Below, one piece after another: positions 21,487 to 43,150 of a stretch of 64,000 nt of DNA (its first letter is position 1; each line of letters opens with the position of its first letter). The notes under the pieces were generated by a model that saw nothing but the letters and a program-made list of their open reading frames with translations, had not been told where the DNA came from and searched no databases. Made by a program: the position numbers and the translations under genes. Source of the DNA: a virus; the IMG/VR virus record IMGVR_UViG_3300027859_000006, positions 44,152 through 108,151 of that record. The stretch is one strand, 5' to 3'.

Positions 21487-21803
21487 TGGTACGATTCCTC
21501 GATTATTCGTGTGCAGCGAGCTTTGAAATTGTCCATACTCGTAGCGGTGTCATTAACAAACTGCAACGCTGATAGAATCCCTTCAGGTTCAGTTCCTAGG
21601 AGGTGCTTTCCAATAACACCTATTGGAAGCCCATTAGCATTATTACTTAAAATGGCATGTAGCTCTTTATCTTCTAGTAGATAGCCTACAACATCGCGAT
21701 GTTTGCCGTCGCTGGAAATGTAGGCATTTTTAAGGATAAGACCTTGGTCTATTACTTCCTGTACCGCTTTAGTAACGCTTTCTTTAGTTAGTGCTTTCAC
21801 CAA
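21483..21803 (-). CDS. family C small protein, copy 3
   Basis: A 106-residue copy whose core reads SSDGKHRDVVGYLLEDKELH; the Cys pair of the other copies is lost but the (V)VG.LLEDKEL part remains. End: ILSALQFVNDTATSMDNF. So the Cys residues are not essential for keeping the gene. Confidence 0.75.
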   Translation of the reverse strand: MVKALTKESVTKAVQEVIDQGLILKNAYISSDGKHRDVVGYLLEDKELHAILSNNANGLPIGVIGKHLLGTEPEGILSALQFVNDTATSMDNFKARCTRIIEESYQ

Positions 21804-22140
21804 AATATCTCCTTACAACGTTCTTCGCTTCTTTTTCAAAATAGTCAAGGTCGACAGCTAAGTCGTGCGCTGACTGTAGTGCCATTAACATTAGTACGTC
21901 TTCTTCGTCAAAGAAACCGTGTACTTCCTGTACTGATTCTACTGCTGTATCACTAGGAGTATTATCTGCTAGCTTTCTTTGCTCCGGAGTAAGAAGCTTG
22001 CCTACTACACAGTTGATATTTGGGTCGTCTGGGCTTTCGTAGTAACATCTCTCCTGCTCATTAACGCTTAGGCATCCCTGTGCCACAACTGCATCGATTG
22101 CATCAACAACTTGCTTTCTAGTTAATCGTTTACTCACCAA
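21784..22140 (-). CDS. family C small protein, copy 2
   Basis: A 118-residue copy: TRKQVVDAIDAVVAQGCL, core DPNINCVVGKLLTPEQRKLA, then VHGFFDEEDVLMLMALQSAH. It is closest to copy 1. Acidic overall. Overlaps its downstream neighbour by 20 bases. Confidence 0.78.
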   Translation of the reverse strand: MVSKRLTRKQVVDAIDAVVAQGCLSVNEQERCYYESPDDPNINCVVGKLLTPEQRKLADNTPSDTAVESVQEVHGFFDEEDVLMLMALQSAHDLAVDLDYFEKEAKNVVRRYFGESTN

Positions 22141-22468
22141 AATACTCCTCTACAACTTTTTTCACTTCTTTTTTAAAACCGTCCAGATCGTTAGCTAAGT
22201 CGTGTACTGCTTGTAGACCAACTAACAATGGAACATCTTCTGGGTCGAAAAATCCATGTTCACGGTTAACCCAGTCTATGCTAGAATCCACTTCAGTAAG
22301 ATCGGCAAGTTCTCTTTGCTCTGGAGTTAGCAACTTACCAACGACACAATTGATATTTGGATTGCTAGGATTTGCATATAGACAGTTCCCTTCAGCGTCC
22401 TGCCCTAAACATCCCTGCGCTACAACCGCATCGATTGCATCAACAACTTGTTTTTTAGTTAAGCGCAT
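22130..22468 (-). CDS. family C small protein, copy 1
   Basis: A 112-residue copy: KKQVVDAIDAVVAQGCLGQD, core NPNINCVVGKLLTPEQRELA, then EHGFFDPEDVPLLVGLQAVH. First of the six C copies. It overlaps the gene before it by 14 bases. Confidence 0.78.
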   Translation of the reverse strand: MRLTKKQVVDAIDAVVAQGCLGQDAEGNCLYANPSNPNINCVVGKLLTPEQRELADLTEVDSSIDWVNREHGFFDPEDVPLLVGLQAVHDLANDLDGFKKEVKKVVEEYFGE

Positions 22469-22700
22469 TAGTAGCCTCCAATAGTTCTTTCAGTGTGGCG
22501 GGTTTAGCGTCTTTTATGTATGGGAAATCTTCACCGTCAAGAACCCAGTACTCTAGCTCTACTAGAACGTTGTTCTCAACACTGGCGATTAGTACTTCGT
22601 CCTCTCCTGCTTTACCATATATATTTCTGTATAGTTCAAAGAAACAGCTTTTCAGGGCTTCTAGGTTTTCTTCTGTGTCTTCGATAATAAAGTTCTTCAT
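22455..22700 (-). CDS. hypothetical acidic protein
   Basis: An 81-residue acidic protein (DTEENLEALKSCFFELYRNI, VENNVLVELEYWVLDGEDF) between a family D gene and family C copy 1, overlapping both. No family recognised. Confidence 0.7.
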   Translation of the reverse strand: MKNFIIEDTEENLEALKSCFFELYRNIYGKAGEDEVLIASVENNVLVELEYWVLDGEDFPYIKDAKPATLKELLEATNALN

Positions 22701-23101
22701 GCTAATAATTCTCTTACTTGTTTAAGGTAGTCTAATGCTGTCTCGGCATTAGATTCTGTGTTTAAATGAGGATGTTCTAATAAAGGGTTCAAAACATCAG
22801 TGGCTTCGGCATCTGTCTTTCTATTCTTCCACCAACTGCCAAACATAGAGTTTGAAACGGTCTCCCCCACCTCGTCTCCCACGTGAAGCCATACTTCATC
22901 AGGGTTAGTATCTTTTACCAGTCTCGAAACTTCAGGGTCTAGTACTGCATAACCGCAGATACAGGCAGCAGTTTCACAGTTATGGATGGTCGTGCTTTTG
23001 CTAAGTAGTTCTTCGTGTTCGTAGAAAACTGCCATGCTAAGCTCTTTATCCCTAGCAACGACTTCTTCCATAGCGTTAATCACAGCGTTCAAAACTTTCA
23101 T
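22697..23101 (-). CDS. family D protein with C-x-x-x-C-x-C-G motif
   Basis: A 134-residue protein of a type common in phages, with a motif like CGTxACIAG: NCETAACICGYAVLDPEVSR here. Helices on both sides; end WWKNRKTDAEATDVLNPLL. Related genes are at 23492 and 24095. The motif resembles the core of family C, so C and D may share an origin. Its own promoter module lies at 23131. Function unknown. Confidence 0.75.
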   Translation of the reverse strand: MKVLNAVINAMEEVVARDKELSMAVFYEHEELLSKSTTIHNCETAACICGYAVLDPEVSRLVKDTNPDEVWLHVGDEVGETVSNSMFGSWWKNRKTDAEATDVLNPLLEHPHLNTESNAETALDYLKQVRELLA

Positions 23102-23130
23102 TCGGATTTCCTCATTTATTTAATACATAT

Positions 23131-23160
23131 ATTATACGTTAAAATTAAGTAGATTTGCAA
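23131..23160 (-). promoter_or_regulatory. promoter module, paralogue unit
   Basis: Minus strand: TTGCAA, 18 bases, TATAAT, leader with GAGGA before the ATG at 23101. It starts the unit of families A-D. The -35 box lies in the end of a decayed gene. Confidence 0.85.
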
Positions 23161-23455
23161 GCGATTTTATCTTTGAATTGAACTATGCGTCTCAATGTTT
23201 TTTGCTTCAAATCTCGGTATCTTAGTTCTTGCTCGTATCGCGTTATTTGGTCTTTTGTTAAGACCTAGTCGTACAGGTGTTTCAATATCTCGCTCTAGTG
23301 CTACATAGCTCATAAAAGAAGTTTTCCGGCTCGTATACGTAAGCTCTTCCATTCGTTTCAAACCAACAGTACCCTATTGTAATATAGCCCTGTTCTTTTA
23401 AATACTGGCTTTATTTCGTCGAAGTAGTTTTCTAGTTCAAAGTCATACTAAGCCT
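23140..23455 (-). pseudogene. decayed gene with at least two frameshifts
   Basis: Three frames in turn give protein-like text with no single open frame: FELENYFDEIKPVFK, then EQGYITIGYCWFETNG and YVYEPENFFYEL, then LTKDQITRYEQELRYRDLKQ and IVQFKDK. Stops fall between the parts. A 64-codon frame here (23167-23361) mixes two of them and is not a real gene. The 3' end now overlaps the promoter of the next unit. The original family is not recognised. Confidence 0.7.
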
Positions 23456-23491
23456 AGAATTATTTCCATACACATGGAATGTTAAGGGTAA

Positions 23492-23890
23492 TCATAGCCT
23501 TTTCAACTTTAATATAATAAGGTTAATGAAGTTGATAGCCATTGCTCTGTTATTATGGTCTTCTGTTAAGTGGGGGTGTTTTAGATCATCGTCTGTGAAG
23601 AACTTAGACTCGTACGCCATTGCACGTCTAGCCATGTAAGTAGACCTATAGATACTTTCTGCCACCCTTAGTCCCGCGTCTTCTAGAACATCCTCAAATA
23701 GGTTTTCTAGTTCGCTAGCTGCTGCTATGCAAGCAAGGTTTGAGGACGCATTACCTGGGTCTCTGTAAACTGTCAAGTCACCTATTAAACAGCAAGAGCT
23801 TCCACAATACCAGTACCCCATGTCTAAAGGGATAGTAGCCTTCTCAGAAGCCTTAATCATTTCTTCTAAAAATTTAATTAGTTTGTTCAT
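23492..23890 (-). CDS. family D protein
   Basis: A 132-residue paralogue with the Cys motif as CGSSCCLIGDLTVYRDPG, followed by helices (CIAAASELENLFEDVLED) and an end LTEDHNNRAMAINFINL that matches the duplicate at 22697 (LNTESNAETALDYLKQV). Start at the ATG with GGAG nine bases upstream; a longer frame runs on 10 codons. The decayed gene lies behind it. Confidence 0.75.
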   Translation of the reverse strand: MNKLIKFLEEMIKASEKATIPLDMGYWYCGSSCCLIGDLTVYRDPGNASSNLACIAAASELENLFEDVLEDAGLRVAESIYRSTYMARRAMAYESKFFTDDDLKHPHLTEDHNNRAMAINFINLIILKLKRL

Positions 23891-24095
23891 TTTGTCGGCT
23901 CTCCAGTATTGAAATGTCAAATGGGTTTAGTACTGAAATTACTTTGTTAAAAGATATTTTTATTCCTGAAAGGTCTGAGAAAATTAAGTTATGGGATTTA
24001 CCCTTTATAGTAATCTCTTTTTCTTTAAGCACGGCAGCCTTCGCTGCCACTTCACTTAAGGGTGTATGGATTACTAGAAGTTCTGCTATTGTCAT
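23874..24095 (-). CDS. hypothetical protein
   Basis: A 73-residue protein (IAELLVIHTPLSEVAAKAAV, ISFNKVISVLNPFDISILES). It overlaps the start of the family D gene behind it by 17 bases and its ATG touches the stop of the one before. No family recognised. Confidence 0.65.
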   Translation of the reverse strand: MTIAELLVIHTPLSEVAAKAAVLKEKEITIKGKSHNLIFSDLSGIKISFNKVISVLNPFDISILESRQNEQTN

Positions 24096-24523
24096 TAGTA
24101 GTCCTTGTAAATTTTAAGTAATTCTTTTTTAGGATCATCGTGCTCAGAGTATTCGTCAGGTACACCGTTTTCTAGGAAATATCTAATGCGTTTCGCTGCT
24201 CCTTTTGGAGTATTATCTACATCTTTCCATTCGTAGCCAAACATCCACTCTTGAGACCGGTAATCAATACCAAAATAGTTCTCTATGAAAATATCCCACA
24301 TAGGAATCATATTAGTCTCTTCGATACTTAGTCCTAGAGCTTGAGGAGCATGACCGATAGCACACGCGGCGTAACCACAGGCTTTAATATCTACATCCTC
24401 TATTTCATCAGGGCAAAGTGTTCCGTTCTCTGAAGCTACCCAGTCTTCCATATCAAAGCGCTTGTAGTCTTCTGGCAAGCCGTCTAGAAATTTTGCTAGT
24501 TTTAAAAGGTTTTCTTTGTTCAT
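24095..24523 (-). CDS. family D protein
   Basis: A 142-residue paralogue with DIKACGYAACAIGHAPQALG, the best form of the family D motif. The middle (FIENYFGIDYRSQEWMFGYE) is longer than in the other copies. End: TPKGAAKRIRYFLENG. First gene of its unit, behind a promoter module. Confidence 0.78.
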   Translation of the reverse strand: MNKENLLKLAKFLDGLPEDYKRFDMEDWVASENGTLCPDEIEDVDIKACGYAACAIGHAPQALGLSIEETNMIPMWDIFIENYFGIDYRSQEWMFGYEWKDVDNTPKGAAKRIRYFLENGVPDEYSEHDDPKKELLKIYKDY

Positions 24524-24552: not shown

Positions 24553-24581
24553 ATTATACGTTAAAATAAGCTATTTATCAA
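24553..24581 (-). promoter_or_regulatory. promoter module
   Basis: Minus strand: TTGATA, 17 bases, TATAAT, then ACTTGTATTGAATGATTGAG and GAA, nearly identical to the plus-strand copy at 17232. Confidence 0.9.
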
Positions 24582-24596: not shown

Positions 24597-24619
24597 AAAA
24601 AGGAGGCCGAAGCCTCCTT
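24597..24619 (-). terminator. terminator of the NAD operon
   Basis: AGGAGGC / GCCTCCT stem with a TTCG-type loop and five U on the minus strand. It overlaps the last codons of the macrodomain gene and isolates the NAD operon from the next unit. The same stem recurs at 34718. Confidence 0.9.
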
Positions 24620-25079
24620 ACTGTAATTTATATACTATAACGTTGTGGTCGATAAAAATTTCCTCTAATAGAGTAATAACTATTTCCCACTTACCACCAG
24701 CTCTATCACTACCCATTAAATATGGTACAGCAATAGTAGAGCCTTTTGGAGCGTACCTTGAAGCTTCTAACATGGCCTCTACTAGAGCCATGTAACTTAA
24801 CTGCCTACCGAAGTTATCGTTCATTAAGCTAGATTTTCCACCAAAGTAGTCTTGACCGTATAAGTTTAAAACTCTACCGTCTGTAGACATACTTCCTAGT
24901 ATCTTATCGTTAGCATTGTAGTGTACAGTATCCGCTTCGTATGCACTGGGAATCCTTTCCCTGATTTCCTTAGCAATGCCGGAGCCAAAGTTGTTTCGAC
25001 AATTGCAGCAGTGCATTAAAAACTCTACTTCACCCTCTAGTAACGCTGAAACTGCATTTCCTAGTTTAAAATCAATCAT
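24618..25079 (-). CDS. macrodomain protein
   Basis: A 153-residue macrodomain, a fold that binds ADP-ribose and related nucleotides and often removes a phosphate or ADP-ribose group. Seen: CCNCRNNFGSGIAKEIRERI (about 23-42), the central DNFGRQL, and the nucleotide loop VPYLMGSDRAGGKW (about 118-131). It resembles single-domain ADP-ribose-1''-phosphatase types (Poa1-like). Last gene of the NAD operon, overlapping the NAMPT gene by four bases (ATGA). It could recycle or clear ADP-ribose derivatives for the pathway. Confidence 0.88.
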   Translation of the reverse strand: MIDFKLGNAVSALLEGEVEFLMHCCNCRNNFGSGIAKEIRERIPSAYEADTVHYNANDKILGSMSTDGRVLNLYGQDYFGGKSSLMNDNFGRQLSYMALVEAMLEASRYAPKGSTIAVPYLMGSDRAGGKWEIVITLLEEIFIDHNVIVYKLQ

Positions 25080-26611
25080 AGCATCGCCCTCATACGCACG
25101 TCATTCCACGACGTTTTGCGAACCATTTTACCATTCTTAAAGATAACTTCTAAGTCACCACCATCATCGTTAGGTTGCTGGTCGTACAGCTCACCATCAA
25201 TAACTTTTAGGTAGCCCTTAGCTGATTTCTTAGTACCATTATCAGTTTTAGGGTCTTTGAACAGTTCTACATGCTCACCACCACGAGTACCTGCCGTAGC
25301 CTTAAACGCAATTCCTAGAGTGTCTCTAGTATTGTACTGGTATGTGTAAGAACCGATACCGAATACAACGTTGCATGATGCAAAACCTTTAGCAGCTAGT
25401 CGAGCCATAATAGCTTCACAACGGTGAAGTGTGATTGAGTCACCATAAATAAGACCTACTGAGCTATTAAGAATTTTGAAGCCTTCTTCGGTTTCGTCAC
25501 CTCCAAAGATATCATACAAAACTTCAACCGCTCCTTTAATCTCATGCTCCGCTAGCTCTTTACCAGTTTTACGGCAGTAGTAAACACCTCCAGATTCACG
25601 ATACTCACTAGGCTTATAACCAGTAAGAATCTTGACAGGGTCTCCACTATCTGGACGGAACACTGTACGTCCTGGCACTAGTACGTTACCGTCTTCATCT
25701 ACAATGTCTTCTCTGCTTTCGATAAGTTCTTTAAGCAGAACTGTGTAAGAAGTAAGAACTTTCCAGAAGTCCCAAGTGTCTGACACGATACTAACAATAC
25801 CAGCAGGGTATAATTTAAGCAAGCGCTCAAACGTATCTATTTCTTTATCTTTAGAGCCCATACACATTACAGAGTGTTCTGTAGCTGGTACTGTAACACC
25901 TGTCATTGGGTCTGCATTGTGGAAGTATTTTAGCGCTTGTTTCACTGGCAATGTATCTGTACCGTTGAAATACACCATGTGACCCATTGCTCCAAATACT
26001 GCGTCTTCTACAAAAGATAGTCCACGCATTGAGAAGTCATGGCACTGTAGCTCTGTAGAGATATCAGAGCAACCTGTACGAGCTGCGTATTCATCTACTA
26101 GAATACGGAATTCACGTGCAATTGTAGCATTAGTAATAGGCTTCCAAGTAACCGCTGATAGCAGAGTTTCTAGGTAATTAGTAACCCAGAAAAACTCAGG
26201 TAATGTGTCTTTAATAGTTAAGAACGGCACTTTAATTTTAGCAACAGTACCTTCCGGCAAGGCCTTGATGATAATTGGCAAGTAGCCTAGGTCATGTAGA
26301 GCGTATACGTGATCTAGAGTAATAGCACCTGGTCCTAGAGCATCTTCTACAACTTCTTTATACTGAGGACATACATCGTCTCGGTCTTGCTTGAAGAAGT
26401 TTTCATCGAATAGCTCTTTAATAAAATATAATACTGTTGCTTCCATACCTACGGCAACGTATTTACCATCGTGCTTAGGCCATGTTTGTTGGAATATTTT
26501 ATTGCTTCGAGGAGTACCATTAGAATATACAACTTCTGTATCTTCAGGGTACTGGCTTCTGTGGTCTAGTTTATAACCATCAGTAATTAGTAAAGGGTTT
26601 AATTTAAACAT
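25076..26611 (-). CDS. nadV: NAMPT-like phosphoribosyltransferase (NARP1 Namat-type)
   Basis: A 511-residue nicotinamide phosphoribosyltransferase homologue, close to the usual 470-500. Family marks: PATEHSVM (catalytic His), VFRPDSGDP (phosphate and ribose binding), LIYGDSITLHRCEAI, VVFGIGSYTYQ and GTRGGEHVELFKDP. Classical role: nicotinamide + PRPP to NMN. Paired with a PRPP-synthetase homologue as here, phage enzymes of this type are known to join nicotinamide to ADP-ribose pyrophosphate and remake NAD+ (NARP1). It overlaps the neighbouring genes by eight and four bases. Confidence 0.93.
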   Translation of the reverse strand: MFKLNPLLITDGYKLDHRSQYPEDTEVVYSNGTPRSNKIFQQTWPKHDGKYVAVGMEATVLYFIKELFDENFFKQDRDDVCPQYKEVVEDALGPGAITLDHVYALHDLGYLPIIIKALPEGTVAKIKVPFLTIKDTLPEFFWVTNYLETLLSAVTWKPITNATIAREFRILVDEYAARTGCSDISTELQCHDFSMRGLSFVEDAVFGAMGHMVYFNGTDTLPVKQALKYFHNADPMTGVTVPATEHSVMCMGSKDKEIDTFERLLKLYPAGIVSIVSDTWDFWKVLTSYTVLLKELIESREDIVDEDGNVLVPGRTVFRPDSGDPVKILTGYKPSEYRESGGVYYCRKTGKELAEHEIKGAVEVLYDIFGGDETEEGFKILNSSVGLIYGDSITLHRCEAIMARLAAKGFASCNVVFGIGSYTYQYNTRDTLGIAFKATAGTRGGEHVELFKDPKTDNGTKKSAKGYLKVIDGELYDQQPNDDGGDLEVIFKNGKMVRKTSWNDVRMRAML

Positions 26612-27368
26612 GCGATTTTACCTTGTTTTCTGCAAATATTTCGTCGTAGTGCTCTGTTAGCACTTCAACGCCTTTTGAAAAGATACCGTGAGATACATGA
26701 AGAATCTTTTTCTTAACTTCTGGTAGAACTTTAGCTAACTCAATGAAAGTACGTCCACCGTCACAAATGTCGTCTATTACCAGTACCACATCATCTTTAG
26801 TGAGTTTATCAATATCAGATACTTTGTAGTCTGTAATCTCCCCCGACTCGTTGCGAACTTTAGTACCGTATAAGATTTTAAGCTCGCACTTTAACTTATT
26901 AGGTAGAAGCTTGTAATACTTGTCCTTAGCTCCTTTATCAGGGAATACTAACGCTGTAGCTTTGTGGTGCGATACTAACTCTTCAACATCTTGATGGACG
27001 TTGTCGTAGTAACCACTGTGTGTATCAGAATGTACATCGAAAGTCACTATGTTATTATAGCTGTTTTTGAGTAACTTAATAATAAGCGCTTTCCCGCCAG
27101 ATTCCCCTTTGGAGCATACTCTATCCTGTCTAGAGTACGGCAAGTATGGTATTGACAATATCAGCGTAACGTTATGATTGGCTCGTCTTAAAGCATCGCT
27201 AAGCATTAGCAATTGCATAATAGTTTCTGAGCTATAATCCTCAGTTACAGATACCGTTAGCTGGTCTGGTAGGTTTTTAGGTATAACCCGAACACCTACT
27301 TCACCTGCGGGAAACTTCCAAAAATCAACAGGTACTTGGTGACCTAATGCATTACTTACTACAATCAT
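26604..27368 (-). CDS. prs: PRPP-synthetase-like kinase (NARP1 Adps-type)
   Basis: A 254-residue ribose-phosphate pyrophosphokinase homologue, shorter than the usual 310-320. ATP site SIPYLPYSRQDRV (about 88-100), metal site FDVHSD, and the PRPP/ribose loop VVLVIDDICDGGRTF (about 195-209) are present. In NARP1 the equivalent enzyme (Adps) pyrophosphorylates ADP-ribose rather than ribose-5-phosphate. The short length and pairing with NAMPT favour that; PRPP synthesis for ordinary salvage is the alternative. Its ATG directly follows the TAA of the 55-aa gene. Confidence 0.9.
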   Translation of the reverse strand: MIVVSNALGHQVPVDFWKFPAGEVGVRVIPKNLPDQLTVSVTEDYSSETIMQLLMLSDALRRANHNVTLILSIPYLPYSRQDRVCSKGESGGKALIIKLLKNSYNNIVTFDVHSDTHSGYYDNVHQDVEELVSHHKATALVFPDKGAKDKYYKLLPNKLKCELKILYGTKVRNESGEITDYKVSDIDKLTKDDVVLVIDDICDGGRTFIELAKVLPEVKKKILHVSHGIFSKGVEVLTEHYDEIFAENKVKSHV

Positions 27369-27536
27369 TTACCGCTCCTCTCTAGGTGCTAAATAGCGGG
27401 GCATTCCCCACACGTTTACAAGGTGTTCGTATTCCCCATCTTTCCAAAGTGACACAAGCTCTTTTATATCATCTTCTTGGTCATCTTCACAGAGCCAGCG
27501 GAAAAAGTTAACTTCTCTAAATGTATTCGTATTCAT
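27369..27536 (-). CDS. 55-aa first gene of the NAD operon
   Basis: A small acidic protein, MNTNTFREVNFFRWL and EDDQEDDIKELVSLWKDGE, ending MPRYLAPREER. Behind a full promoter module with GGAG before the ATG; its TAA abuts the ATG of the PRPP-synthetase-like gene, whose ribosome-binding site (GAGAGGAG) lies in its last codons. So it is expressed with the NAD genes and couples their translation. Function unknown. Confidence 0.75.
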   Translation of the reverse strand: MNTNTFREVNFFRWLCEDDQEDDIKELVSLWKDGEYEHLVNVWGMPRYLAPREER

Positions 27537-27560
27537 TTGTTCTCCTTAATTTATGTATAT

Positions 27561-27589
27561 ATTATACGAAATTAAGAGCGTTTTGGCAA
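27561..27589 (-). promoter_or_regulatory. promoter of the NAD operon
   Basis: Minus strand: TTGCCA, 17 bases, TATAAT, short leader with GGAG. The -35 box lies in the last codons of the upstream gene. Confidence 0.9.
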
Positions 27590-34717: not shown

Positions 34718-34743
34718 AAAAAAGGAGGCCGAAGCCTCCTTTT
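34718..34743 (-). terminator. terminator after the Ro60-like gene
   Basis: AAAGGAGGC / GCCTCCTTT stem, TTCG-type loop, U tract on the minus strand. The stem is the same as that at 24597. Confidence 0.92.
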
Positions 34744-36124
34744 ATAAGTAGTCGTACTTAGGTATGCACAGCGCGGATTTGACCATGTCTAGAGGTGTTA
34801 CTACTTCCCCAGACAATACTGTCTTCATAACCGCAGCTGAGAAGCCCGATACTAAAACAGTACCATTCTGTCCAGCTCTAACTGGTACGTTATCACGTCT
34901 GCTAGCAATGTTCCAGAACACTAATTTAGGAGCAGTAAAACCTGAGGCTTCAAAGTCTCTAATAGTTTTCTCAGATACAGGGCTTGAACCGCAACGGTCA
35001 AATTCCATATCAGACAGTACGATTAACGCATCTGGCAAATCTTCATCAGTCAGTCCGTTAGCAACGGCTCTATCCAGGATAGTTTGCATAGCGCGATTAA
35101 TATCCGTATTCATGCCCCAGTGCGCTCTACTTAGGTTACGAAGACGAGTTTCTAAGGTATCACCACAAAGTTCTTGCATTCTAGGACGTTCAGAGAACGT
35201 TAAGAACTGGTCTTTGAACACTCCTTTGTTTCGCTCGGCTAGGTAAATACCAAGAGACATTGCTACTTGCATAGTAGTGAATTTAGTATTCCCAGCTGCA
35301 ACACACATAGACGCTGAAACGTCTATCATAGGCAAAAAGCTGCCTTCGCCCACGTAATCTGGCAAACCTTTCCATTGAGCTTCTCGAAGCTGCCCTGAAC
35401 TATTTGCTACAATCTCATAAGGATATAGCACGCTAGAGTTAACCGTATCCTTGCCCTTTTCAAGGGCGGATAGATACTCTTCGTATCTTTCACCGTCATT
35501 GCGAGCAAACGCTTTGCGATAAAGTAACTGAGCACGAGAAGGCAACTTACCGTACTCAATTTGATCCCACTCACGATTACACATCTGAGTCTCAACTACG
35601 TTAGTAGTTTCAACTAACAGCTTGCGCAAAGTTTTTGGCGGAACGCCAAGGTGACGGCGCACCTCTCCGAAGATTGTACCTTTACGAGGCATCCACTTAG
35701 CTGCTAGAGCATTTTTCTCAACCGCAATAGCGCGTAGCCATACGGTGATAGCGTGTGCCTTAATGTCTCCACCAAGTTCAATTACTGGGATTAGGTCGTC
35801 GAAGCGACCAATCTCAGGGATTTTTGATACAATGGCTTTACCTGTTTCTAGGTCGACCAGTTTAAGGATTTGTGTAATCCATTGGCGGAAGTGTTTACGT
35901 TCACCGTAACCACCACGAGGGTCACGTGTATACAGAGCTAAGCGAATAGCCAAGTCTGGGTTTTCTTTAAAAGCCTGTAAGAATTCACCTACTAGGTTAG
36001 TTCCACGGCTAGAACCTGCACGACCGAATAAGTCTACTAGGAATGAACCTGATGTAGAGTTTGTTACTGCTCTATTCTCTGTAAATGAGTTAGCGTGCGT
36101 CATTGCGTTAAATAGTTTGTTCAT
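34742..36124 (-). CDS. Ro60/DUF2828-like RNA-binding vWA protein
   Basis: A 460-residue protein with an alpha-helical repeat part (about 1-250: LAIRLALYTRDPRGGYGERK, IPEIGRFDDLIPVI) and a von Willebrand A domain (about 265-440) with the metal-site motif DVSASM, then TFSERP and ALIVLSDMEFD. This is the layout of TROVE/Ro60 and DUF2828 proteins. Ro60 proteins bind misfolded RNA and Y RNAs and guide RNA decay or repair. It stands next to the tRNA cluster, which suggests a role in tRNA or ncRNA quality control. Confidence 0.85.
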   Translation of the reverse strand: MNKLFNAMTHANSFTENRAVTNSTSGSFLVDLFGRAGSSRGTNLVGEFLQAFKENPDLAIRLALYTRDPRGGYGERKHFRQWITQILKLVDLETGKAIVSKIPEIGRFDDLIPVIELGGDIKAHAITVWLRAIAVEKNALAAKWMPRKGTIFGEVRRHLGVPPKTLRKLLVETTNVVETQMCNREWDQIEYGKLPSRAQLLYRKAFARNDGERYEEYLSALEKGKDTVNSSVLYPYEIVANSSGQLREAQWKGLPDYVGEGSFLPMIDVSASMCVAAGNTKFTTMQVAMSLGIYLAERNKGVFKDQFLTFSERPRMQELCGDTLETRLRNLSRAHWGMNTDINRAMQTILDRAVANGLTDEDLPDALIVLSDMEFDRCGSSPVSEKTIRDFEASGFTAPKLVFWNIASRRDNVPVRAGQNGTVLVSGFSAAVMKTVLSGEVVTPLDMVKSALCIPKYDYL

Positions 36125-36759: not shown

Positions 36760-36835
36760 TGGGGTGACTGACGGGGTTCGAACCCGCATAATCTAGAATC
36801 ACAGTCTAGGACATTTCCAAATCTGCCACAGCCAC
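36760..36835 (-). tRNA. tRNA-His (GTG)
   Basis: 76 nt with CCA encoded. Acceptor GTGGCTG/CAGTCAC, anticodon loop CTGTGAT, T arm GGTTCGAACC. Discriminator C, as bacterial tRNA-His needs. Confidence 0.93.
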
Positions 36836-37342
36836 ACTAAATAACTCTAATCACCGTACCGAGAAAGTGTACAAAGCTTTCTCTATGATTTTTTGTTACT
36901 CTGTCTTACCAGAGTAGGTACAGATACGGGAAAGAGCTTTCGGGTTTTGGTAGTACTCCAGACCCGCCGGAAGTTCTCCAGCGAAGGGGAATTGAACCCC
37001 TTACCTAACCCTATTTAGGAGTGAGAGTACGAAAGAGATAGCTAGTCTCGTTCATGGGAGGATCAATCCCTAATTACTACACTCCATATAACCACTCAAT
37101 TATATGGAGTGTCTCTGGCGGCTTCTCACACCGATTTTATACAGACCCAGAGACTGCCTGACCGCGTTCCTGCGGCAGTGGGATACTTTATATAACAAAA
37201 GTAACAAAACTTGACACGTTTAAGTGAAAGTGAAAGTGCCCAAGACCTTGGAATTTTATACTGGATTCCAACAGTACCACTCTACTACATCTAGGGCGAG
37301 ATGGCGTAGTTCCGCTACGCTCGGGAGATTTTATTCTGTTAG
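36836..37342 (-). ncRNA. structured non-coding region beside the Ro60-like unit
   Basis: About 500 nt with no gene but many hairpins. 37081-37110 is a perfect 11-bp stem (ACTCCATATAA/TTATATGGAGT); 37111-37118 pairs with 37147-37154 (GTCTCTGG/CCAGAGAC); ACTGCC/GGCAGT at 37153-37179; GCGTAG/CTACGC at about 37305-37320. Two T-arm-like hairpins occur (36985-37001, AGGGG AATTGAA CCCCT; 37056-37070). No matching acceptor stems were found, so these are not ordinary tRNAs. It may be decayed tRNAs or a structured RNA that binds the Ro60-like protein. Confidence 0.5.
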
Positions 37343-37648
37343 TCAACCGTGCTCTTCTTCGTTGTAAACTTCTACTTCGTAGACCAGCTCTCCTGTAGCG
37401 TCTTCGTATCCTTCAACTTCTAGGTCTTCTAACTCTTCTTCAGTGTACTCGTCTTCGCAGATTGGAGTTCCGATAGTATCCAAGTCTCCGAAAGCATCCT
37501 CATCTTGGTACATGCCGTACATTTCGGCGTTATCGATTGAGTACTGACGAGCAAGCTCCATTGCCGCTTCTTCGTCTTTCGCCTCTAAAATACCTTCGTC
37601 GTCACAGCCTGCGAAGCCAGTTCCAACTTTGTAGTAATACTTAATCAT
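37343..37648 (-). CDS. acidic hypothetical protein
   Basis: A 101-residue, strongly acidic protein (IKYYYKVGTGFAGCDDEGIL, CEDEYTEEELEDLEVEGYED). Start at the ATG behind GAGGAG; the frame also extends five codons upstream. Acidic phage proteins of this size can mimic DNA, but nothing specific supports that here. Behind a promoter module. Confidence 0.72.
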   Translation of the reverse strand: MIKYYYKVGTGFAGCDDEGILEAKDEEAAMELARQYSIDNAEMYGMYQDEDAFGDLDTIGTPICEDEYTEEELEDLEVEGYEDATGELVYEVEVYNEEEHG

Positions 37649-37678
37649 TAACGTTCTCCTCAATCATTCAATACAAGT

Positions 37679-37708
37679 ATTATACGTTAATTTTGCTTGT
37701 TTGGCTAA
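37679..37708 (-). promoter_or_regulatory. promoter module
   Basis: Minus strand: TTAGCC, 18 bases, TATAAT, then ACTTGTATTGAATGATTGAG and GAG. The -35 box is weaker than in other copies. Confidence 0.8.
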
Positions 37709-38198
37709 TGATTTTTTCTTTTGAAATAGGCTTCCAGCTTTCTAATTGTTCCATAGATACGTTTACATATCTAGGGTCTGGTATTATATGACTGTGTAAA
37801 TGTCCGTGAATATTTAGCTTTGCTCTATATTCTAGTTGGTTAGGGTGAACTGGCATATGCGTAATAAGAACTTTACCAAAACCCTTCCAGCGGTCTTCTA
37901 AGCATCCTGCTAGTTTTACGTTTGGAAGTGCTTCTTGTATTAAATGAACTTTACTAGGATAATCGTGATTTCCTAGCACTACTATAATGTCTTCACAGTG
38001 CAATGCTGAAAGTCGCCAAAACTCAGAATTGAATGCTAGGTCTCCTAGTAGGTATAGCTTATCTGTGGGTTTAACAGTATCATTGATAGCCTCAATGATA
38101 GTTTTGTTGTGTGTTTCTATATCTGGGAAGTTACGACCGAACTCAAGAATCCGTCTGTGTCCCAAATGTAAGTCGCTGGCAAAGTACGTTGTACTCAT
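37680..38198 (-). CDS. metallophosphoesterase
   Basis: A 172-residue calcineurin-like phosphoesterase with all metal motifs: ASDLHLGH (about 7-14), LLGDLAF (49-55), VLGNHDYP, ITHMPVHP and NIHGHLHSH. Substrate unknown; single-domain phage enzymes of this kind are thought to act on nucleotides or nucleic-acid ends. Its 3' end overlaps the next promoter module, and its start overlaps the gene before it by 56 bases. Confidence 0.9.
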   Translation of the reverse strand: MSTTYFASDLHLGHRRILEFGRNFPDIETHNKTIIEAINDTVKPTDKLYLLGDLAFNSEFWRLSALHCEDIIVVLGNHDYPSKVHLIQEALPNVKLAGCLEDRWKGFGKVLITHMPVHPNQLEYRAKLNIHGHLHSHIIPDPRYVNVSMEQLESWKPISKEKIISQTSKINV

Positions 38199-38430
38199 TT
38201 AAAAATTCCTCTGGTGTTACGTCTCTGTAGTATACTTCATCTACATAGCCTATTGGAGTGTTTACTGAATACTGAGGATCTCCAGTCTCCCAGATTTCTC
38301 CTTTTCTACGTATAGCTCTAGTAAGTATAAGCTGCGGTACTAATCTTTTACGTAAGCCTAAAAAGCCGTAACGTTCTATACGATTTTCTATTCTAAACTT
38401 GTATTCATCTGTAGGGGTTTCTGTTACCAT
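38143..38430 (-). CDS. hypothetical basic protein
   Basis: A 95-residue protein (YKFRIENRIERYGFLGLRKR, IGYVDEVYYRDVTPEEFLNE). Its ATG lies in the last codons of the 55-aa membrane gene. Family unknown. Confidence 0.7.
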   Translation of the reverse strand: MVTETPTDEYKFRIENRIERYGFLGLRKRLVPQLILTRAIRRKGEIWETGDPQYSVNTPIGYVDEVYYRDVTPEEFLNEYNVLCQRLTFGTQTDS

Positions 38431-38591
38431 TGCACTTCTGCCCTATCTAAATACGTTCCAACCATAACTACGTTTCCTGCTGCTAGGAAGTAGGTGATTG
38501 CTGCCATTAGGTAATTGTGAGTATCCCCTAATACAGAGATAGCTAAGTAAGCCGCCACTGCAATGGCTGCTAATTCTCTTTTAGTATTCAT
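38424..38591 (-). CDS. 55-aa membrane protein
   Basis: MNTKRELAAIAVAAYLAISV then YLMAAITYFLAAGNVVMVG: two likely helices. GAGGA stands before the ATG and the end overlaps the next start by seven bases. Function unknown. Confidence 0.68.
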   Translation of the reverse strand: MNTKRELAAIAVAAYLAISVLGDTHNYLMAAITYFLAAGNVVMVGTYLDRAEVQW

Positions 38592-38983
38592 GTTACTTCC
38601 TCGTTAATAAATATTTGGTCTGCGCTTAAAGTAGGGAGAGGCACTCGGTTTAGGCGTCAGCTACTGAGAGTCCACTAGTTATCCAGACTACTCGACCTAC
38701 GAAAGTCAAGAACTGCGTTACTTGCAGATGTGGCTTTTTTGGATACCCGCATCACAACATAAGCGCATACCAAATATCTATATAAAAAGTGGCTGACTGG
38801 GGTGGACAGTCAGCACTTTTACCATTTAACAAACACAAAGGAGATCAAATGCACTACACCCTAACTTTATTATATAGCCGAAGCTACGGCTGACATTTTT
38901 GGCTTTGACGTGCCCTAGAGGATTACACCCCGTCCTCTAGTCGGGTACTGAGGGCTTGCTTAAACTGCAAGTAAGCCCCAATC
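38592..38983 (-). ncRNA. structured non-coding region closed by a 18-bp stem
   Basis: No gene in about 390 nt. An 18-bp inverted repeat with one mismatch (38611-38628 and 38760-38777, ATATTTGGTCTGCGCTTA) encloses 131 nt. Behind it on the minus strand's 5' side are further hairpins: 38874-38889 (AGCCG/CGGCT), CTAGAGGA/TCCTCTAG at 38914-38941, and GGGCTT/AAGCCC near 38952-38979. This looks like a structured transcript, or transcripts, rather than spacer. Confidence 0.55.
38784..38820 (-). terminator. terminator hairpin in the structured region
   Basis: AAAAGTG.CTGACT / AGTCAG.CACTTTT, about 13 bp, with a U run on both strands. It lies directly next to the 18-bp stem structure. Confidence 0.75.
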
Positions 38984-39232
38984 TTATAAAACTAACCGTG
39001 CTGATATTGTTGTTACGTCTTGGTCGTCGATTAGCTCACCGTCTTCATCTAAATTGTCCGAATCTGTGTACTCGCCGTCACCTACCCCCATCAAGTCAAA
39101 CTGAGAAGTAAAGTCTTCTAAGAATTTCTCTTCTGACCAGTCTTCTGCGTGGCAGTCTGGAACATCGTCAGGTACTTCGTAAGTCTCTGTATACCCACAA
39201 TAATCAACACAATATATTTCAACAATTTTCAT
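38984..39232 (-). CDS. acidic hypothetical protein
   Basis: An 82-residue very acidic protein (EVPDDVPDCHAEDWSEEKFL, DSDNLDEDGELIDDQD). Similar in style to the gene at 37343. Behind a promoter module and followed by hairpins. Function unknown. Confidence 0.7.
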   Translation of the reverse strand: MKIVEIYCVDYCGYTETYEVPDDVPDCHAEDWSEEKFLEDFTSQFDLMGVGDGEYTDSDNLDEDGELIDDQDVTTISARLVL

Positions 39233-39261
39233 TCACTTTCCTCATTTCTTAATATGTGTAT

Positions 39262-39290
39262 ATTATACGTTAAATTAACTTGTTTAGCAA
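39262..39290 (-). promoter_or_regulatory. promoter module
   Basis: Minus strand: TTGCTA, 17 bases, TATAAT, leader ATATACACATATTAAGAAAT plus GAGGAAA. Confidence 0.9.
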
Positions 39291-39304
39291 ATGATTTAAT
39301 AATT

Positions 39305-39432
39305 TGGAGCAGAGAGAAGGAATCGAACCTCCGCCAATCTTTTATGAGAAGAAAGCTAAATAGTTGCTGCAAGTATTCTTCCAAACAGAATACCTTGTTT
39401 GCTGTATTATGCTACCACTACACCATCTCTGC
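39305..39432 (-). tRNA. 128-nt interrupted tRNA-like gene
   Basis: Perfect acceptor GCAGAGA/TCTCTGC, encoded CCA, D arm GTGT-AGTGGTA-GCAT and a good T arm, but 128 nt long. If position 26 joins the anticodon arm at TTCTT-CTCATAA-AAGAT, the tRNA is normal with anticodon CAT and about 52 nt inserted between D and anticodon arms. The insert has its own 7-bp hairpin (GTATTCT-GTTTGGA-AGAATAC; read as an anticodon arm it would be TTG, Gln) and begins with ACAGCAAAC, the motif of the stem-loop family in the spacers. Function as a tRNA is doubtful without removal of the insert. Confidence 0.6.
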
Positions 39433-39534
39433 ATGAGTACCCTAGGAAGTGCACTCCCTAAGTTTAGTATTATAGACCTGACCGGCTCGGCTCGGATTAT
39501 TATAGTGGGGTCAATCACTCTACGTTTTATAAGG
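39433..39534. other. short non-coding gap
   Basis: Contains an imperfect palindrome around AGTGCACT and nothing else I can name; probably the processed leader of the interrupted tRNA-like gene. Confidence 0.4.
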
Positions 39535-39732
39535 CTAACGTATTACCTCAGAATTTATAAACTTCTCTGAGCTAAGGTCTATAGCCCTAACTTCGAAATC
39601 CCAATATAGTGGGCAGTTAAGCTCTTCTTCTGCTACGTTTTGTGCTTTTTCGTAAGCTTCTGAAATAGACAGGTCATCGTCAACCTCTACCTGTACTGTT
39701 TTAGTAATCTTTACTTCTACTTCAACAAACAT
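39535..39732 (-). CDS. 65-aa hypothetical protein
   Basis: A small acidic protein, MFVEVEVKITKTVQVEVDDD, SISEAYEKAQNVAEEELNCP, resembling the start of a beta-alpha-beta fold. Behind a promoter module. No family named with confidence. Confidence 0.68.
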   Translation of the reverse strand: MFVEVEVKITKTVQVEVDDDLSISEAYEKAQNVAEEELNCPLYWDFEVRAIDLSSEKFINSEVIR

Positions 39733-39761
39733 TCGTTTTCCTCATTTCTTAATATGTGTAT

Positions 39762-39790
39762 ATTATACGCTGAAATGGGTTATTTTGCAA
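39762..39790 (-). promoter_or_regulatory. promoter module
   Basis: Minus strand: TTGCAA, 17 bases, TATAAT, same leader with GAGGAAA. The 150 bases upstream (39791-39954) hold no gene. Confidence 0.9.
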
Positions 39791-39954
39791 ATGATTTAAT
39801 AATTAATTTGAATGTCATACCAGGTTCCGAACCAGTTAAAATAAAACCTATAAATTATACTCTTTTTGTAATACAGTACTTTAGGTATAATTGTAGTGGA
39901 TATATTTAGTCTATAAGTGCTTGGTCTTTTACACATTTTTACCGCTGAAATCAT

Positions 39955-40194
39955 TTAGTCGCGCCCTAGTAGTAGATTTATAGGTATCTCTTTGCCTGAG
40001 TTACACGTAAAGGTATGTCTGTTGTAAGACTTTAACTCTCCAAATCCGTTAAGCTCACAAAAGCTATTATAAGACTCTAGCTTAACTAGCGTTGCTTTGT
40101 ACTCAAAGTCTGCGTTAGTTTCGACGCCTGATCCTATAACAAAGCCTAATGCGAAAGCCATCATGATTGTAAAGAAAGCGATTGGGGCTGGCAT
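39955..40194 (-). CDS. 79-aa secreted or membrane-anchored protein
   Basis: An N-terminal hydrophobic helix (IAFFTIMMAFALGFVIGSGV) and a polar remainder with two Cys (NSFCELNGFG, RHTFTCNSG), which suggests a periplasmic domain with a disulphide. AAGGA stands before the ATG. Function unknown; superinfection-exclusion proteins can look like this. Confidence 0.65.
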   Translation of the reverse strand: MPAPIAFFTIMMAFALGFVIGSGVETNADFEYKATLVKLESYNSFCELNGFGELKSYNRHTFTCNSGKEIPINLLLGRD

Positions 40195-40215
40195 ATCTAT
40201 ATATCCTTTATTAAA

Positions 40216-40247
40216 TAAAAAGAAACCCCTGCTTTTACACAGGGGTT
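40216..40247 (-). terminator. terminator after the methylase gene
   Basis: AACCCCTG / CAGGGGTT stem, 8-nt loop and U tract on the minus strand. Confidence 0.9.
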
Positions 40248-40278
40248 ATTGACACCTCGGTAGCGAATTTCCAAGTCG

Positions 40279-40758
40279 TCAAAGGTTTGGAAACCAACAA
40301 ATGTCTGAGAACGTTTCTATAAACTTCTCTTTGTTGTTCCCGAAGTAAGTAAAACATGAACCCCTAGAGCCTTTACCTTTGTAAGTCCCATCGGGTAGCA
40401 TAAAGCTAAGTCTTCCAGTTGTGTAGGCTTGTAGTCCAGAGCGCAGAGGTACAGACCATAATGTATCTGTTCCGGCATTGGTTAGCATAATCCCCTCTGC
40501 CATGTTACCGTTTTGATATTCGGCTAGGAACTTCGCTGTGAAGTGCTTTAAAAGCTTTGTGGAGTAAGGCGGGTTACACCAGACTCTCCCAATCCAGGGC
40601 TTTTCAAGCCCAGAATCTTCAGCAGTATAAATTTTTGAAGCTCCGACAGTGCGGTTTGCATATTCACAACTAGCAGGGTCTAAGTCAATAGTTCCCAGTA
40701 CAAGTTTAGCTTTCTCTATAATATAAGGTGGAGTGTACCATTCACAATTCATATTCAT
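40279..40758 (-). CDS. phage DNA N-6-adenine methyltransferase
   Basis: A 159-residue enzyme of the small phage Dam-type family: EWYTPPYIIEKAKLVLGTID, LDPASCEYANRTVGA (S-adenosylmethionine site) and RVWCNPPYSTKLLKHF, with the NPPY catalytic motif. The target is probably GATC by family, which is notable because GATC is rare outside 9.2-12 kb. Behind tRNA-Arg; its ribosome-binding site (AAGGA) begins five bases after the CCA end. Confidence 0.9.
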   Translation of the reverse strand: MNMNCEWYTPPYIIEKAKLVLGTIDLDPASCEYANRTVGASKIYTAEDSGLEKPWIGRVWCNPPYSTKLLKHFTAKFLAEYQNGNMAEGIMLTNAGTDTLWSVPLRSGLQAYTTGRLSFMLPDGTYKGKGSRGSCFTYFGNNKEKFIETFSDICWFPNL

Positions 40759-40771
40759 GTTTTCCTTAAAA

Positions 40772-40847
40772 TGGCACTGACAGCAGGACTCGAACCTACA
40801 ACCTCTCCGTTCGTAGCGGAGTGCTCTTCCAGTTGAGCTATGCCAGC
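40772..40847 (-). tRNA. tRNA-Arg (ACG)
   Basis: 76 nt with CCA. Acceptor GCTGGCA/TGTCAGT (two G-U), anticodon loop CTACGAA, T loop TTCGAGT. The protein gene before it ends ten bases inside this tRNA. Confidence 0.94.
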
Positions 40848-41266
40848 TTTGGTGTTTCTATTTTTACAATAAGAATATCTTTAGGCATTCCTCTTGTATA
40901 GTGTTCTAAAATTTCCCATGTTGGAGGATACTCGTCAATTAAAATAAGTAGTTTTCCTAAGCCTCTTATTTCTACAAAATGTGTCTTTGCGTGTTTATCT
41001 ATCCTAACAGAATCAGGATTCATGTTATCTAGCATTTCTTTAATAAACACTGACTTTCCCGACGCTCTAGGTAGTCCCCAAGAGTAATGCATAAACTCCT
41101 TTGCAGACACTAGAGGGTTGTAGTATCCTCGGAAATTATTGTAACCAGTTAGTCCTTGCTTTAACATAGGATTATCCAATGTAGGACATGACCAGTACCT
41201 TGAATCTATTAGTTTGGATTTGTGAAGCCAGTCATTGATTAGTTTTAGAACGTCAGTTTGCCACAT
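40838..41266 (-). CDS. P-loop NTPase-like protein
   Basis: A 142-residue protein with a Walker-like loop GLPRASGKSVFIKEML (about 64-79; one residue longer than the standard spacing) and a Walker-B-like LLILIDEYPP (about 106-115). N-terminal part: WLHKSKLIDSRYWSCP. Too small for a full AAA+ module; a nucleotide-binding helper protein is likely. Its stop lies inside tRNA-Arg. Confidence 0.7.
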   Translation of the reverse strand: MWQTDVLKLINDWLHKSKLIDSRYWSCPTLDNPMLKQGLTGYNNFRGYYNPLVSAKEFMHYSWGLPRASGKSVFIKEMLDNMNPDSVRIDKHAKTHFVEIRGLGKLLILIDEYPPTWEILEHYTRGMPKDILIVKIETPKLA

Positions 41267-41283
41267 ATTTCCTCTTTTTGATT

Positions 41284-41360
41284 TGGAAGACTAGAGGGGA
41301 ATCGAACCCCTATGAGCTGGATTTGCAATCCAGTGCCTATATCCCTTCAGCCACTAGTCC
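41284..41360 (-). tRNA. tRNA-Cys (GCA)
   Basis: 77 nt with CCA. Acceptor GGACTAG/CTAGTCT, anticodon arm CTGGA-TTGCAAA-TCCAG, T loop TTCGATT. The coding gene before it ends 24 bases inside. Confidence 0.95.
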
Positions 41361-41726
41361 ATTGTTATAGTTTTCAGTTAATTCTTCATGGTTCTTCATA
41401 GCTCCAGGACTTAAAAACCTTTCGCCTACCTCCATAAGATGGTTGTTTAGGTAGAACGGCACTAAAACTACATCTGCGTTGTGTCCTGGCTCTATCCGTA
41501 TCTTACCAGTAGCTCCTAAATGTTTCCTTAGTGCGGTAAATGCAGGGTGGTAATCAAAAGAAGTTATACCAAATTTCTTGTATTCTGAATCATAGTAAGT
41601 AATACCGGAATATAAGCTGCACATATACTCAGGATTTAAGAAGTAATACTCGGGCATTCCTAAGTCTAGTTTCAATTGAAAGTACCTCCCACTTTTTCTA
41701 GCAAAATCTATCATTAAGTCTAGCAT
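41337..41726 (-). CDS. hypothetical protein ending inside tRNA-Cys
   Basis: About 129 residues: LDLMIDFARKSGRYFQLKLD, YYFLNPEYMCSLYSGITYY and IEPGHNADVVLVPFYLNNHL. The frame continues seven codons upstream to a GTG; the ATG at 41726 has a weak GAG. The last eight codons overlap tRNA-Cys. Family unknown. Confidence 0.65.
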   Translation of the reverse strand: MLDLMIDFARKSGRYFQLKLDLGMPEYYFLNPEYMCSLYSGITYYDSEYKKFGITSFDYHPAFTALRKHLGATGKIRIEPGHNADVVLVPFYLNNHLMEVGERFLSPGAMKNHEELTENYNNGLVAEGI

Positions 41727-41817
41727 ACAATTATCTCGTTGCTCCACCTACAGCCTTCTACTGCACCTTAAAAGATTCACTCGCAGAACGGAAGTGATGG
41801 TAGTTTCTTTTTGCAAA

Positions 41818-41906
<89 letters not shown>

Positions 41907-41907
<1 letters not shown>

Positions 41908-42143: not shown

Positions 42144-42160
42144 TTTATTCCTTGGTTGAT

Positions 42161-42235
42161 TGGTGGAGACACCGTGGGTCGAACACGGCGGTTTTGCCTT
42201 ATGAGAGCAAACTGAGCACCTACCGCTCCATCTCC
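42161..42235 (-). tRNA. tRNA with CAT anticodon (Met or Ile2)
   Basis: 75 nt with CCA. Acceptor GGAGATG/TGTCTCC, anticodon arm TTGCT-CTCATAA-GGCAA, T arm CCGTG-TTCGACC-CACGG. With two other CAT tRNAs present, this one may be the lysidine-type Ile tRNA; base modification cannot be seen. Confidence 0.92.
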
Positions 42236-42666: not shown

Positions 42667-42680
42667 AGAATTCCTTAATT

Positions 42681-43146: not shown

Positions 43147-43150
43147 TAGT

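What the first reader, a model, noticed from the sequence alone, without database searches (positions are those of the whole stretch)
24597..27589. NARP1-like NAD+ rebuilding operon with an added macrodomain gene
Four coupled genes behind one promoter and before one terminator: a 55-aa protein, a short PRPP-synthetase homologue, a NAMPT homologue and a macrodomain. The middle pair matches the published NARP1 pathway, in which phages turn ADP-ribose plus nicotinamide back into NAD+ and so defeat NAD-depleting defences. A macrodomain and a leading 55-aa protein are not, as far as I know, described parts. The macrodomain could remove a phosphate from ADP-ribose-1''-phosphate or release ADP-ribose from proteins, feeding the kinase.
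Basis: partly seen in the sequence, partly recalled or inferred. Interest (0 to 1): 0.82.

Follow-up and report, generated by a model that had tools for sequence, protein, structure and literature searches.

The report
Phage NAD+ rebuilding operon with macrodomain
This T5-like phage carries the known two-enzyme pathway that phages use to rebuild the vital cofactor NAD+ after bacterial defences destroy it, plus an adjoining enzyme that probably frees more of the ADP-ribose raw material; the same trio has already been reported in a Pseudomonas phage, but here it proves to be a recurrent cassette, seen in three gene orders and also beside the other phage NAD+ pathway.

Summary
On the minus strand at 27536-24618 lie four tightly coupled ORFs (gap 0, overlaps of 8 and 4 bases): a 55-aa protein, Adps, Namat and a macrodomain, between a consensus promoter and a terminator. 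Namat carries the exact published signature (GSYTYQYNTRD) with its catalytic and adenine-clamp residues, so this is NARP1 by sequence. The macrodomain is an ALC1-like hydrolase with the active-site Asn and Gln of SCO6735 invariant across 97 phage relatives; characterised near relatives release free ADP-ribose. The 55-aa ORF is a real gene (dN/dS 0.16) but occurs only in two close relatives.

The macrodomain partner is not undescribed: the Pakpunavirus Adele paper (PMC12846349, December 2025) reports Adps-Namat-macro and proposes the same ADP-ribose feed. What I add: the macro gene sits beside NARP1 in three gene orders across unrelated phages, well above chance, and the same family also lies near NadM-Nudix and a true Nampt, without Adps, in about 13 further clusters. 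It is a recurrent but optional partner of both phage NAD+ pathways. No KptA, NADAR or RNA ligase was detected in this 108-kb record. The substrate remains unknown. New member of a known kind.

The parts
27561..27589 (-). sigma-70-type promoter TTGCCA-17-TATAAT, overlapping the 3' end of the upstream ORF
   Evidence: 11 of 12 matches; surrounding sequence conserved in L001/L002; predicted only
27369..27536 (-). 55-aa protein, unknown function, real gene, lineage-restricted
   Evidence: AAGGAG before ATG; dN/dS 0.16; homologues only in L001 and L002
26604..27368 (-). Adps: short PRPP-synthetase homologue, predicted ADP-ribose pyrophosphate synthetase
   Evidence: aligned with SPbetaL1 Adps, 29% identity, loop DDICDGGRTF
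25076..26611 (-). Namat: nicotinamide ADP-ribose transferase with signature GSYTYQYNTRD
   Evidence: 49% identity to SPbetaL1 Namat; catalytic F193, D219, R319, D321 and clamp Y422, Y426, T428, R429, D430, K38
24618..25079 (-). ALC1-like macrodomain, predicted ADP-ribosyl hydrolase/phosphatase releasing free ADP-ribose
   Evidence: phrog_335 3e-36; A3 profile vs BT1257 1e-24, SCO6735 2e-22, DarG 2e-18, Poa1p 3e-18; AF2 pLDDT 93.6; N26, G34, A36, Q76, P119 invariant in 97 sequences
24600..24619 (-). intrinsic terminator (8-bp GC-rich stem, 4-nt loop, T run)
   Evidence: identical stem in L001 and L082

Best explanation
The operon is a NARP1 NAD+ rebuilding unit of a T5-like phage with an added ADP-ribose-releasing macrodomain. 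Adps pyrophosphorylates ADP-ribose left by NADase defences, and Namat joins the product to nicotinamide to give NAD+ (established for homologues; inferred here from sequence signatures). The macrodomain cleaves ADP-ribose off an adduct at the distal ribose C1'' (DNA, protein or phosphate), which both undoes that adduct and returns free ADP-ribose to the NAD+ pathway (inferred). The 55-aa protein is a lineage-specific accessory of unknown role.
For: Namat has the exact signature GSX(T/S)X(Q/N)X(N/V)TRD reported as absent from Nampt, and all catalytic and clamp residues; the solved structure 9w5x scores 439 bits versus 196 for human NAMPT. Adps overlaps Namat, and Adps lies near Namat in nearly all of 80 independently retrieved Namat loci. 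The macrodomain fold is confidently predicted and matches BT1257, TARG1, DarG and Poa1p. Invariant Asn26 and Gln76 match SCO6735 Asn27 and Gln85, both needed for its activity, and SCO6735 releases ADP-ribose from DNA and protein. All four genes are under purifying selection. Adjacency: of 50 Namat contigs, 15 have a macro gene and 5 of those lie within 400 bp (0.21 expected by uniform placement, 0 of 200,000 trials). In 82 macro clusters Namat/Nampt is within 400 bp in 18, whereas RNR, PhoH, ClpP and other control genes are adjacent in 0-1. Three gene orders: Adps-Namat-macro, Adps-macro-Namat, macro-Adps-Namat. In Barbavirus the block swaps with the pair: flanks about 99% identical at DNA level, macro only 67% at protein level. 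In the second cassette class the macro sits beside NadM-Nudix, a Nudix that could also consume ADP-ribose. Precedent: RyDEP beside NARP1 supplies ADP-ribose.
Against: No enzymatic evidence for any of these proteins. 35 of 50 Namat contigs show no macro gene (many are fragments), so it is not required for NARP1. The macro also occurs with no NAD+ pathway nearby (45 of 82 clusters) and with an Adps-free pathway (about 13 clusters). The ADP-ribose adduct it would act on is not identified; this record has no detected KptA, NADAR or RNA ligase.
Confidence: 0.6

Rival explanations
1. The pair is NARP1, but the macrodomain is a separate counter-defence enzyme that strips ADP-ribose from phage DNA or proteins (DarT-like or ART toxins). 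It is parked beside NARP1 in an NAD/ADP-ribose counter-defence island, and any ADP-ribose it frees is incidental.
For: Closest characterised relatives are SCO6735/BT1257 and DarG, and SCO6735 reverses DarT thymidine ADP-ribosylation and rescues cells. The macro occurs widely without any NAD+ pathway in the fetched flanks (45 of 82 clusters; Barba12A; ABPH49 beside an RNA ligase).
Against: Tight, repeated coupling in one operon with NAD+ rebuilding genes of two kinds and in three orders. The catalytic Lys of DarG/TARG1 is Gln here, although SCO6735 works with Gln.
Confidence: 0.27
2. Metabolite repair: the macrodomain is a Poa1p-like ADP-ribose-1''-phosphate phosphatase that salvages ADP-ribose-1''-phosphate, either a breakdown product of the unstable Adps product (1''-pyrophosphate) or the by-product of host KptA.
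For: His23 and Asn26 coincide with Poa1p His23 and Asn26 (residues named). PHROG calls the family phosphatase. No KptA was detected in the phage itself, so a source linked to Adps chemistry would explain the operon.
Against: Poa1p Ser30 is Asn30 here (Thr/Val in most relatives). The profile scores Poa1p below BT1257 and SCO6735. The breakdown route is my inference. It does not explain the Adps-free NadM-Nudix cassette.
Confidence: 0.08
3. The macrodomain binds or degrades cyclic ADP-ribose-type immune signals (Thoeris).
For: Iyer and Aravind proposed that phage Macro domains degrade soluble ADP-ribose signals. RyDEP beside NARP1 does exactly that with a different fold.
Against: I found no macrodomain shown to cleave 2'- or 3'-cADPR; the RyDEP paper states that none was known before it. 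Conserved hydrolase residues speak against a pure sponge.
Confidence: 0.04
4. Ordinary PRPP synthetase plus NAMPT making NMN, not NARP1.
For: Namat can also use PRPP in vitro; family models name the first enzyme ribose-phosphate diphosphokinase.
Against: The adenine-clamp signature is complete; no NMN adenylyltransferase lies in the operon; the NCBIfam subfamily cut-off for PRPP synthetase is not reached (103.2 of 113 bits).
Confidence: 0.01

Closest known systems
NARP1 of Bacillus phage SPbetaL1 (Adps-Namat; PMC12774641, which cites the original Nature 2024 paper)
   Same: Adps directly followed by Namat; Namat 49% identical with the same catalytic and adenine-clamp residues
   Different: No macrodomain found in the fetched 5.4-kb stretch and no 55-aa homologue; Adps only 29% identical; clamp-loop Arg40 is Lys38 here
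Pakpunavirus Adele / SW_PA2862_7_24 Adps-Namat-macro (PMC12846349)
   Same: Same trio in the same order, and the same proposal that the macrodomain releases ADP-ribose for NARP1
   Different: Small extra ORFs between the genes; macro only about 35% identical and with the GCGLAG-type loop instead of GSDRAGG; no 55-aa homologue
Rheinheimera phage Barba19A (PMC6715854) and Pseudoalteromonas phage PH357
   Same: Macro, prs-like and nadV-like genes in one run
   Different: Order macro-Adps-Namat; Barba19A was interpreted as nucleotide salvage, with macro filed as host signalling
RyDEP-NARP1 of mycobacteriophage DyoEdafos (PMC13232231)
   Same: A third enzyme beside NARP1 that produces ADP-ribose for it, shown biochemically
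   Different: RyR-domain fold acting on 2'/3'cADPR, not a macrodomain
SCO6735 / BT1257 ALC1-like macrodomains
   Same: Best profile matches; invariant Asn and Gln at the positions essential in SCO6735
   Different: Bacterial chromosomal proteins; sequence identity low (about 22%)
Yeast Poa1p ADP-ribose-1''-phosphate phosphatase
   Same: His23 and Asn26 conserved; fold match, TM-score 0.75
   Different: Ser30 not conserved; lower profile score than SCO6735/BT1257
KVP40-type NadV/NatV NMN salvage
   Same: Related phage NAD+ rebuilding; the same macro family sits in NadM-Nudix/Nampt cassettes
   Different: True Nampt without the adenine clamp and no Adps

Membership tests
NARP1 (Adps + Namat) | Namat signature GSX-X-X-TRD with aromatic residues at motif positions 3 and 7 | tested here: met
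   GSYTYQYNTRD, Y422 and Y426; Adps-free phage Nampts L142/L144 read GGALLQIVNRD
NARP1 (Adps + Namat) | Conserved catalytic core (SPbetaL1 F189, D215, R306, D308) | tested here: met
   F193, D219, R319, D321
NARP1 (Adps + Namat) | Selectivity-clamp loop basic residue (Arg40) | tested here: inconclusive
   Lys38 here and Lys in all other non-Bacillus Namats compared, but also Lys in Nampts; the loop is variable by the authors' account
NARP1 (Adps + Namat) | Adps gene in one operon with Namat | tested here: met
   8-base overlap; near Namat in nearly all of 80 Namat loci
NARP1 (Adps + Namat) | Adps makes ADPR-PP from ADP-ribose; Namat makes NAD+ from ADPR-PP and nicotinamide | not testable with these tools
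   needs enzyme assays
Canonical PRPP synthetase | Reaches the NCBIfam subfamily cut-off TIGR01251 | tested here: not met
   103.2 of 113 bits
ALC1-like macrodomain, SCO6735 type | Fold and profile match | tested here: met
   AF2 pLDDT 93.6; Foldseek BT1257 1.8e-9; profile BT1257 1.4e-24, SCO6735 1.8e-22
ALC1-like macrodomain, SCO6735 type | Essential Gln85 and Asn27 | tested here: met
   Gln76 and Asn26, invariant in 97 sequences
DarG / TARG1 type macrodomain | Catalytic Lys (DarG Lys80, TARG1 Lys84) | tested here: not met
   Gln76 at the equivalent place
Poa1p ADP-ribose-1''-phosphate phosphatase | His23, Asn26 and Ser30 together | tested here: not met
   His23 and Asn26 met; Ser30 is Asn30
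Any ADP-ribose-releasing macrodomain | Releases free ADP-ribose from an adduct | not testable with these tools
   needs enzyme assays

The most novel reading that the evidence does not exclude
An ALC1-like (Gln-type) macrodomain is a general third component of phage NAD+ rebuilding. It feeds free ADP-ribose either to Adps (NARP1) or to the Nudix half of NadM-Nudix (NMN salvage), so one enzyme both removes an ADP-ribosylation-based attack and converts the removed group into NAD+. The three-order NARP1 cassettes and the NadM-Nudix/macro/Nampt cassettes would be two solutions to the same problem.
Probability: 0.35. Interest if true: 0.72.

Novelty: new member of a known kind. Interest (0 to 1): 0.47.

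Why it matters
If the macrodomain frees ADP-ribose for Adps, phages could turn ADP-ribosylation-based defences into a source of NAD+ and counter two classes of defence with one operon. The gene-order survey makes that testable in many phages and separates an optional partner from the core pair. Finding the same macro family in NadM-Nudix/Nampt cassettes suggests the partner is tied to NAD+ rebuilding as such, not to NARP1 alone.

Tried and rejected
Pfam Macro did not find the macrodomain in this record; phrog_335 and structure prediction did. A source of ADP-ribose-1''-phosphate inside the phage was sought and not detected: no KptA, NADAR or RNA ligase. The GxDR variant of the glycine-rich loop looked NARP1-specific at first, but only 12 of 37 carriers have NARP1 in the fetched flank, so I dropped it. 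A wider family for the 55-aa protein was sought in named phages, PHROGs and all fetched loci and not found. Claiming the trio as undescribed was rejected after PMC12846349. Reading the adjacency as a requirement was rejected: 35 of 50 Namat contigs have no macro gene detected. The macro-centred sample was seeded mostly with NARP1-linked macros, so its NARP1 fraction is biased upward; the NadM-Nudix class was not among the seeds. The uniform-placement null ignores functional clustering; the control genes address this only in part.
Full report
WHAT IS THERE. The window is bases 44152-108151 of a 108,151-base IMG/VR virus record. Its large terminase is about 60% identical to Vibrio siphophages such as vB_VpS_PG07, so it is most likely a T5-like phage; the Vibrio phages Achelous and BBMuffin, which carry a related cassette, are filed under Demerecviridae, Ermolyevavirinae. 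On the minus strand four ORFs run 55 aa (27536-27369), Adps (27368-26604), Namat (26611-25076) and macrodomain (25079-24618), with spacing 0, -8 and -4 bases. A near-consensus promoter lies at 27589-27561 and a GC-rich terminator at 24619-24600; both regions are conserved in close relatives. Codirectional genes upstream could read through, so 'one promoter' is a prediction.

THE PAIR IS NARP1 BY SEQUENCE. The published Namat signature, said to be absent from Nampt, is matched exactly: GSYTYQYNTRD (for the motif, for the alignment). Against SPbetaL1 Namat (49% identity) the catalytic F189, D215, R306, D308 are F193, D219, R319, D321, and the adenine clamp F392, Y396, T398, R399, D400 is Y422, Y426, T428, R429, D430. 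R40 is K38, as in all non-Bacillus Namats compared. A search of solved structures puts 9w5x first at 439 bits versus 196 for human NAMPT; that 9w5x is the SPbetaL1 enzyme is my inference from residue numbering. Adps is 29% identical to SPbetaL1 Adps and falls below the NCBIfam PRPP-synthetase cut-off. Activity is inferred.

THE MACRODOMAIN. Pfam misses it; phrog_335 finds it at 3e-36. An AlphaFold model from 97 natural sequences has pLDDT 93.6 and matches BT1257, TARG1, DarG and Poa1p. As a profile the phage family is closest to BT1257 (90 bits) and SCO6735 (83), then DarG (70), Poa1p (69) and TARG1 (59). Asn26 and Gln76 are invariant in all 97. They correspond to SCO6735 Asn27 and Gln85, whose mutation nearly or completely abolishes activity; Gln85 replaces the catalytic lysine of TARG1/DarG, and SCO6735 frees ADP-ribose from DarT-modified DNA and from protein. 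His23 and Asn26 also coincide with Poa1p, but Poa1p Ser30 does not. So the protein looks catalytically competent, and its characterised near relatives yield free ADP-ribose, but the substrate cannot be read from sequence.

THE 55-AA PROTEIN. It is under purifying selection (dN/dS 0.16, 54 codons) and has a good ribosome site, but homologues occur only in two close relatives, L001 and L002. It is not a general NARP1 part.

IS THE MACRO GENE A REAL PARTNER? Starting from Namat: Adps is near Namat in nearly all of 80 loci. Of 50 contigs searched whole, 15 have a phrog_335 gene; 5 of the 15 lie within 400 bp of Namat and 10 within 5.5 kb, against 0.21 and 2.5 expected by uniform placement. Starting from the macrodomain: 82 clusters at 70% identity; 21 have Adps and Namat within 8 kb, 13 have NadM-Nudix and Nampt, 3 are partial, 45 have none. 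Namat/Nampt is within 400 bp in 18 clusters, whereas eight control genes are adjacent in 0-1. Named phages show three orders: Adps-Namat-macro (Pakpunavirus, Otagovirus REC), Adps-macro-Namat (Thalassavirus, Vibrio P018-4, Vibrio 1.063.O) and macro-Adps-Namat (Barba19A, PH357). In Barbavirus, Barba12A has a macro alone at the site where Barba19A has macro-Adps-Namat; flanking DNA is about 99% identical but the two macros are only 67% identical, so the macro seems to have been exchanged together with the pair. Direction of that exchange is not known.

A SECOND CASSETTE. In about 13 clusters the same macro family sits near, often directly between, a NadM-Nudix protein (CTP_transf_like plus NUDIX) and a true Nampt without the Namat signature, and no Adps is present in the fetched flank. 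The macro therefore accompanies both phage NAD+ routes. Nudix domains of this kind are thought to consume ADP-ribose or NAD+ (also my own knowledge), so a free-ADP-ribose supplier could serve both, but this is inference. It argues against feeding Adps as the only role of the family.

PRIOR ART. The Pakpunavirus Adele paper (December 2025) names Adps, Namat and a downstream Poa1p-like macrodomain and suggests it releases ADP-ribose for NARP1. GenBank already labels the REC gene Poa1p-like. Barba19A was reported in 2019 with the three genes, without the link. RyDEP provides a proven example of an ADP-ribose supplier beside NARP1. I found no paper in the library on the NadM-Nudix/macro/Nampt cassette, though the 2022 survey of viral NAD/ADP-ribose systems notes NADAR near NadM and NadV. 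The original NARP1 paper is not held, so what it says about macrodomains was not checked.

MECHANISM AND VERDICT. Shown: gene order, family identities, signature residues, selection, recurrent adjacency. Inferred: NAD+ synthesis by this pair, ADP-ribose release by this macrodomain, and the functional link. The most likely reading is a NARP1 operon with a macrodomain that removes ADP-ribose adducts and returns the product to the pathway. The main rival is that the macrodomain is an independent anti-ADP-ribosylation enzyme sharing the operon. The finding is real and its interpretation reasonable, but it is a new member of a kind already reported; the added value is the breadth of the association, the active-site class, and the second cassette.

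Noticed in passing
L139, L141, L142, L144, L161 and others (e.g. L144:6743-9947): Cassette NadM-Nudix / small Zn-ribbon-like protein / macrodomain / true Nampt, without Adps, in uncultured viral contigs; no named phage macro above about 40% identity to the one tested.
   Followed up: partly
L086 (Barba12A) versus L088 (Barba19A): Flanks about 99% identical, but the macro is only 67% identical and an Adps-Namat pair is present in one phage only: the block appears exchanged as a unit.
   Followed up: yes
window 57590-58712 (-): Thymidylate synthase is split: a 177-aa first part ends at MWHQR and the remainder (DVFLGLPFNIASYA...) resumes about 260 bases later; the insert looks by eye like a short ORF-less group I intron, but Rfam did not call it at the gathering cut-off.
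   Followed up: partly
window 21784-24523 (-): Run of small unannotated ORFs (112-142 aa), the two at 21784-22468 clearly similar to each other (VVGKLLTPEQ...), without Pfam matches where tested.
   Followed up: no
window 36760-48619 (-): 21 tRNA genes.
   Followed up: no
window 59556-60884 (-): Glutaredoxin fused to the ribonucleotide reductase small subunit.
   Followed up: no
window 34742-36124 (-): 460-aa DUF2828/DUF7788 protein, probably TROVE/vWA-like by eye.
   Followed up: no
window 24553-24581 (-): Second near-consensus promoter (TTGATA-17-TATAAT) just after the operon terminator, with the surrounding sequence conserved in L001 and L082.
   Followed up: no
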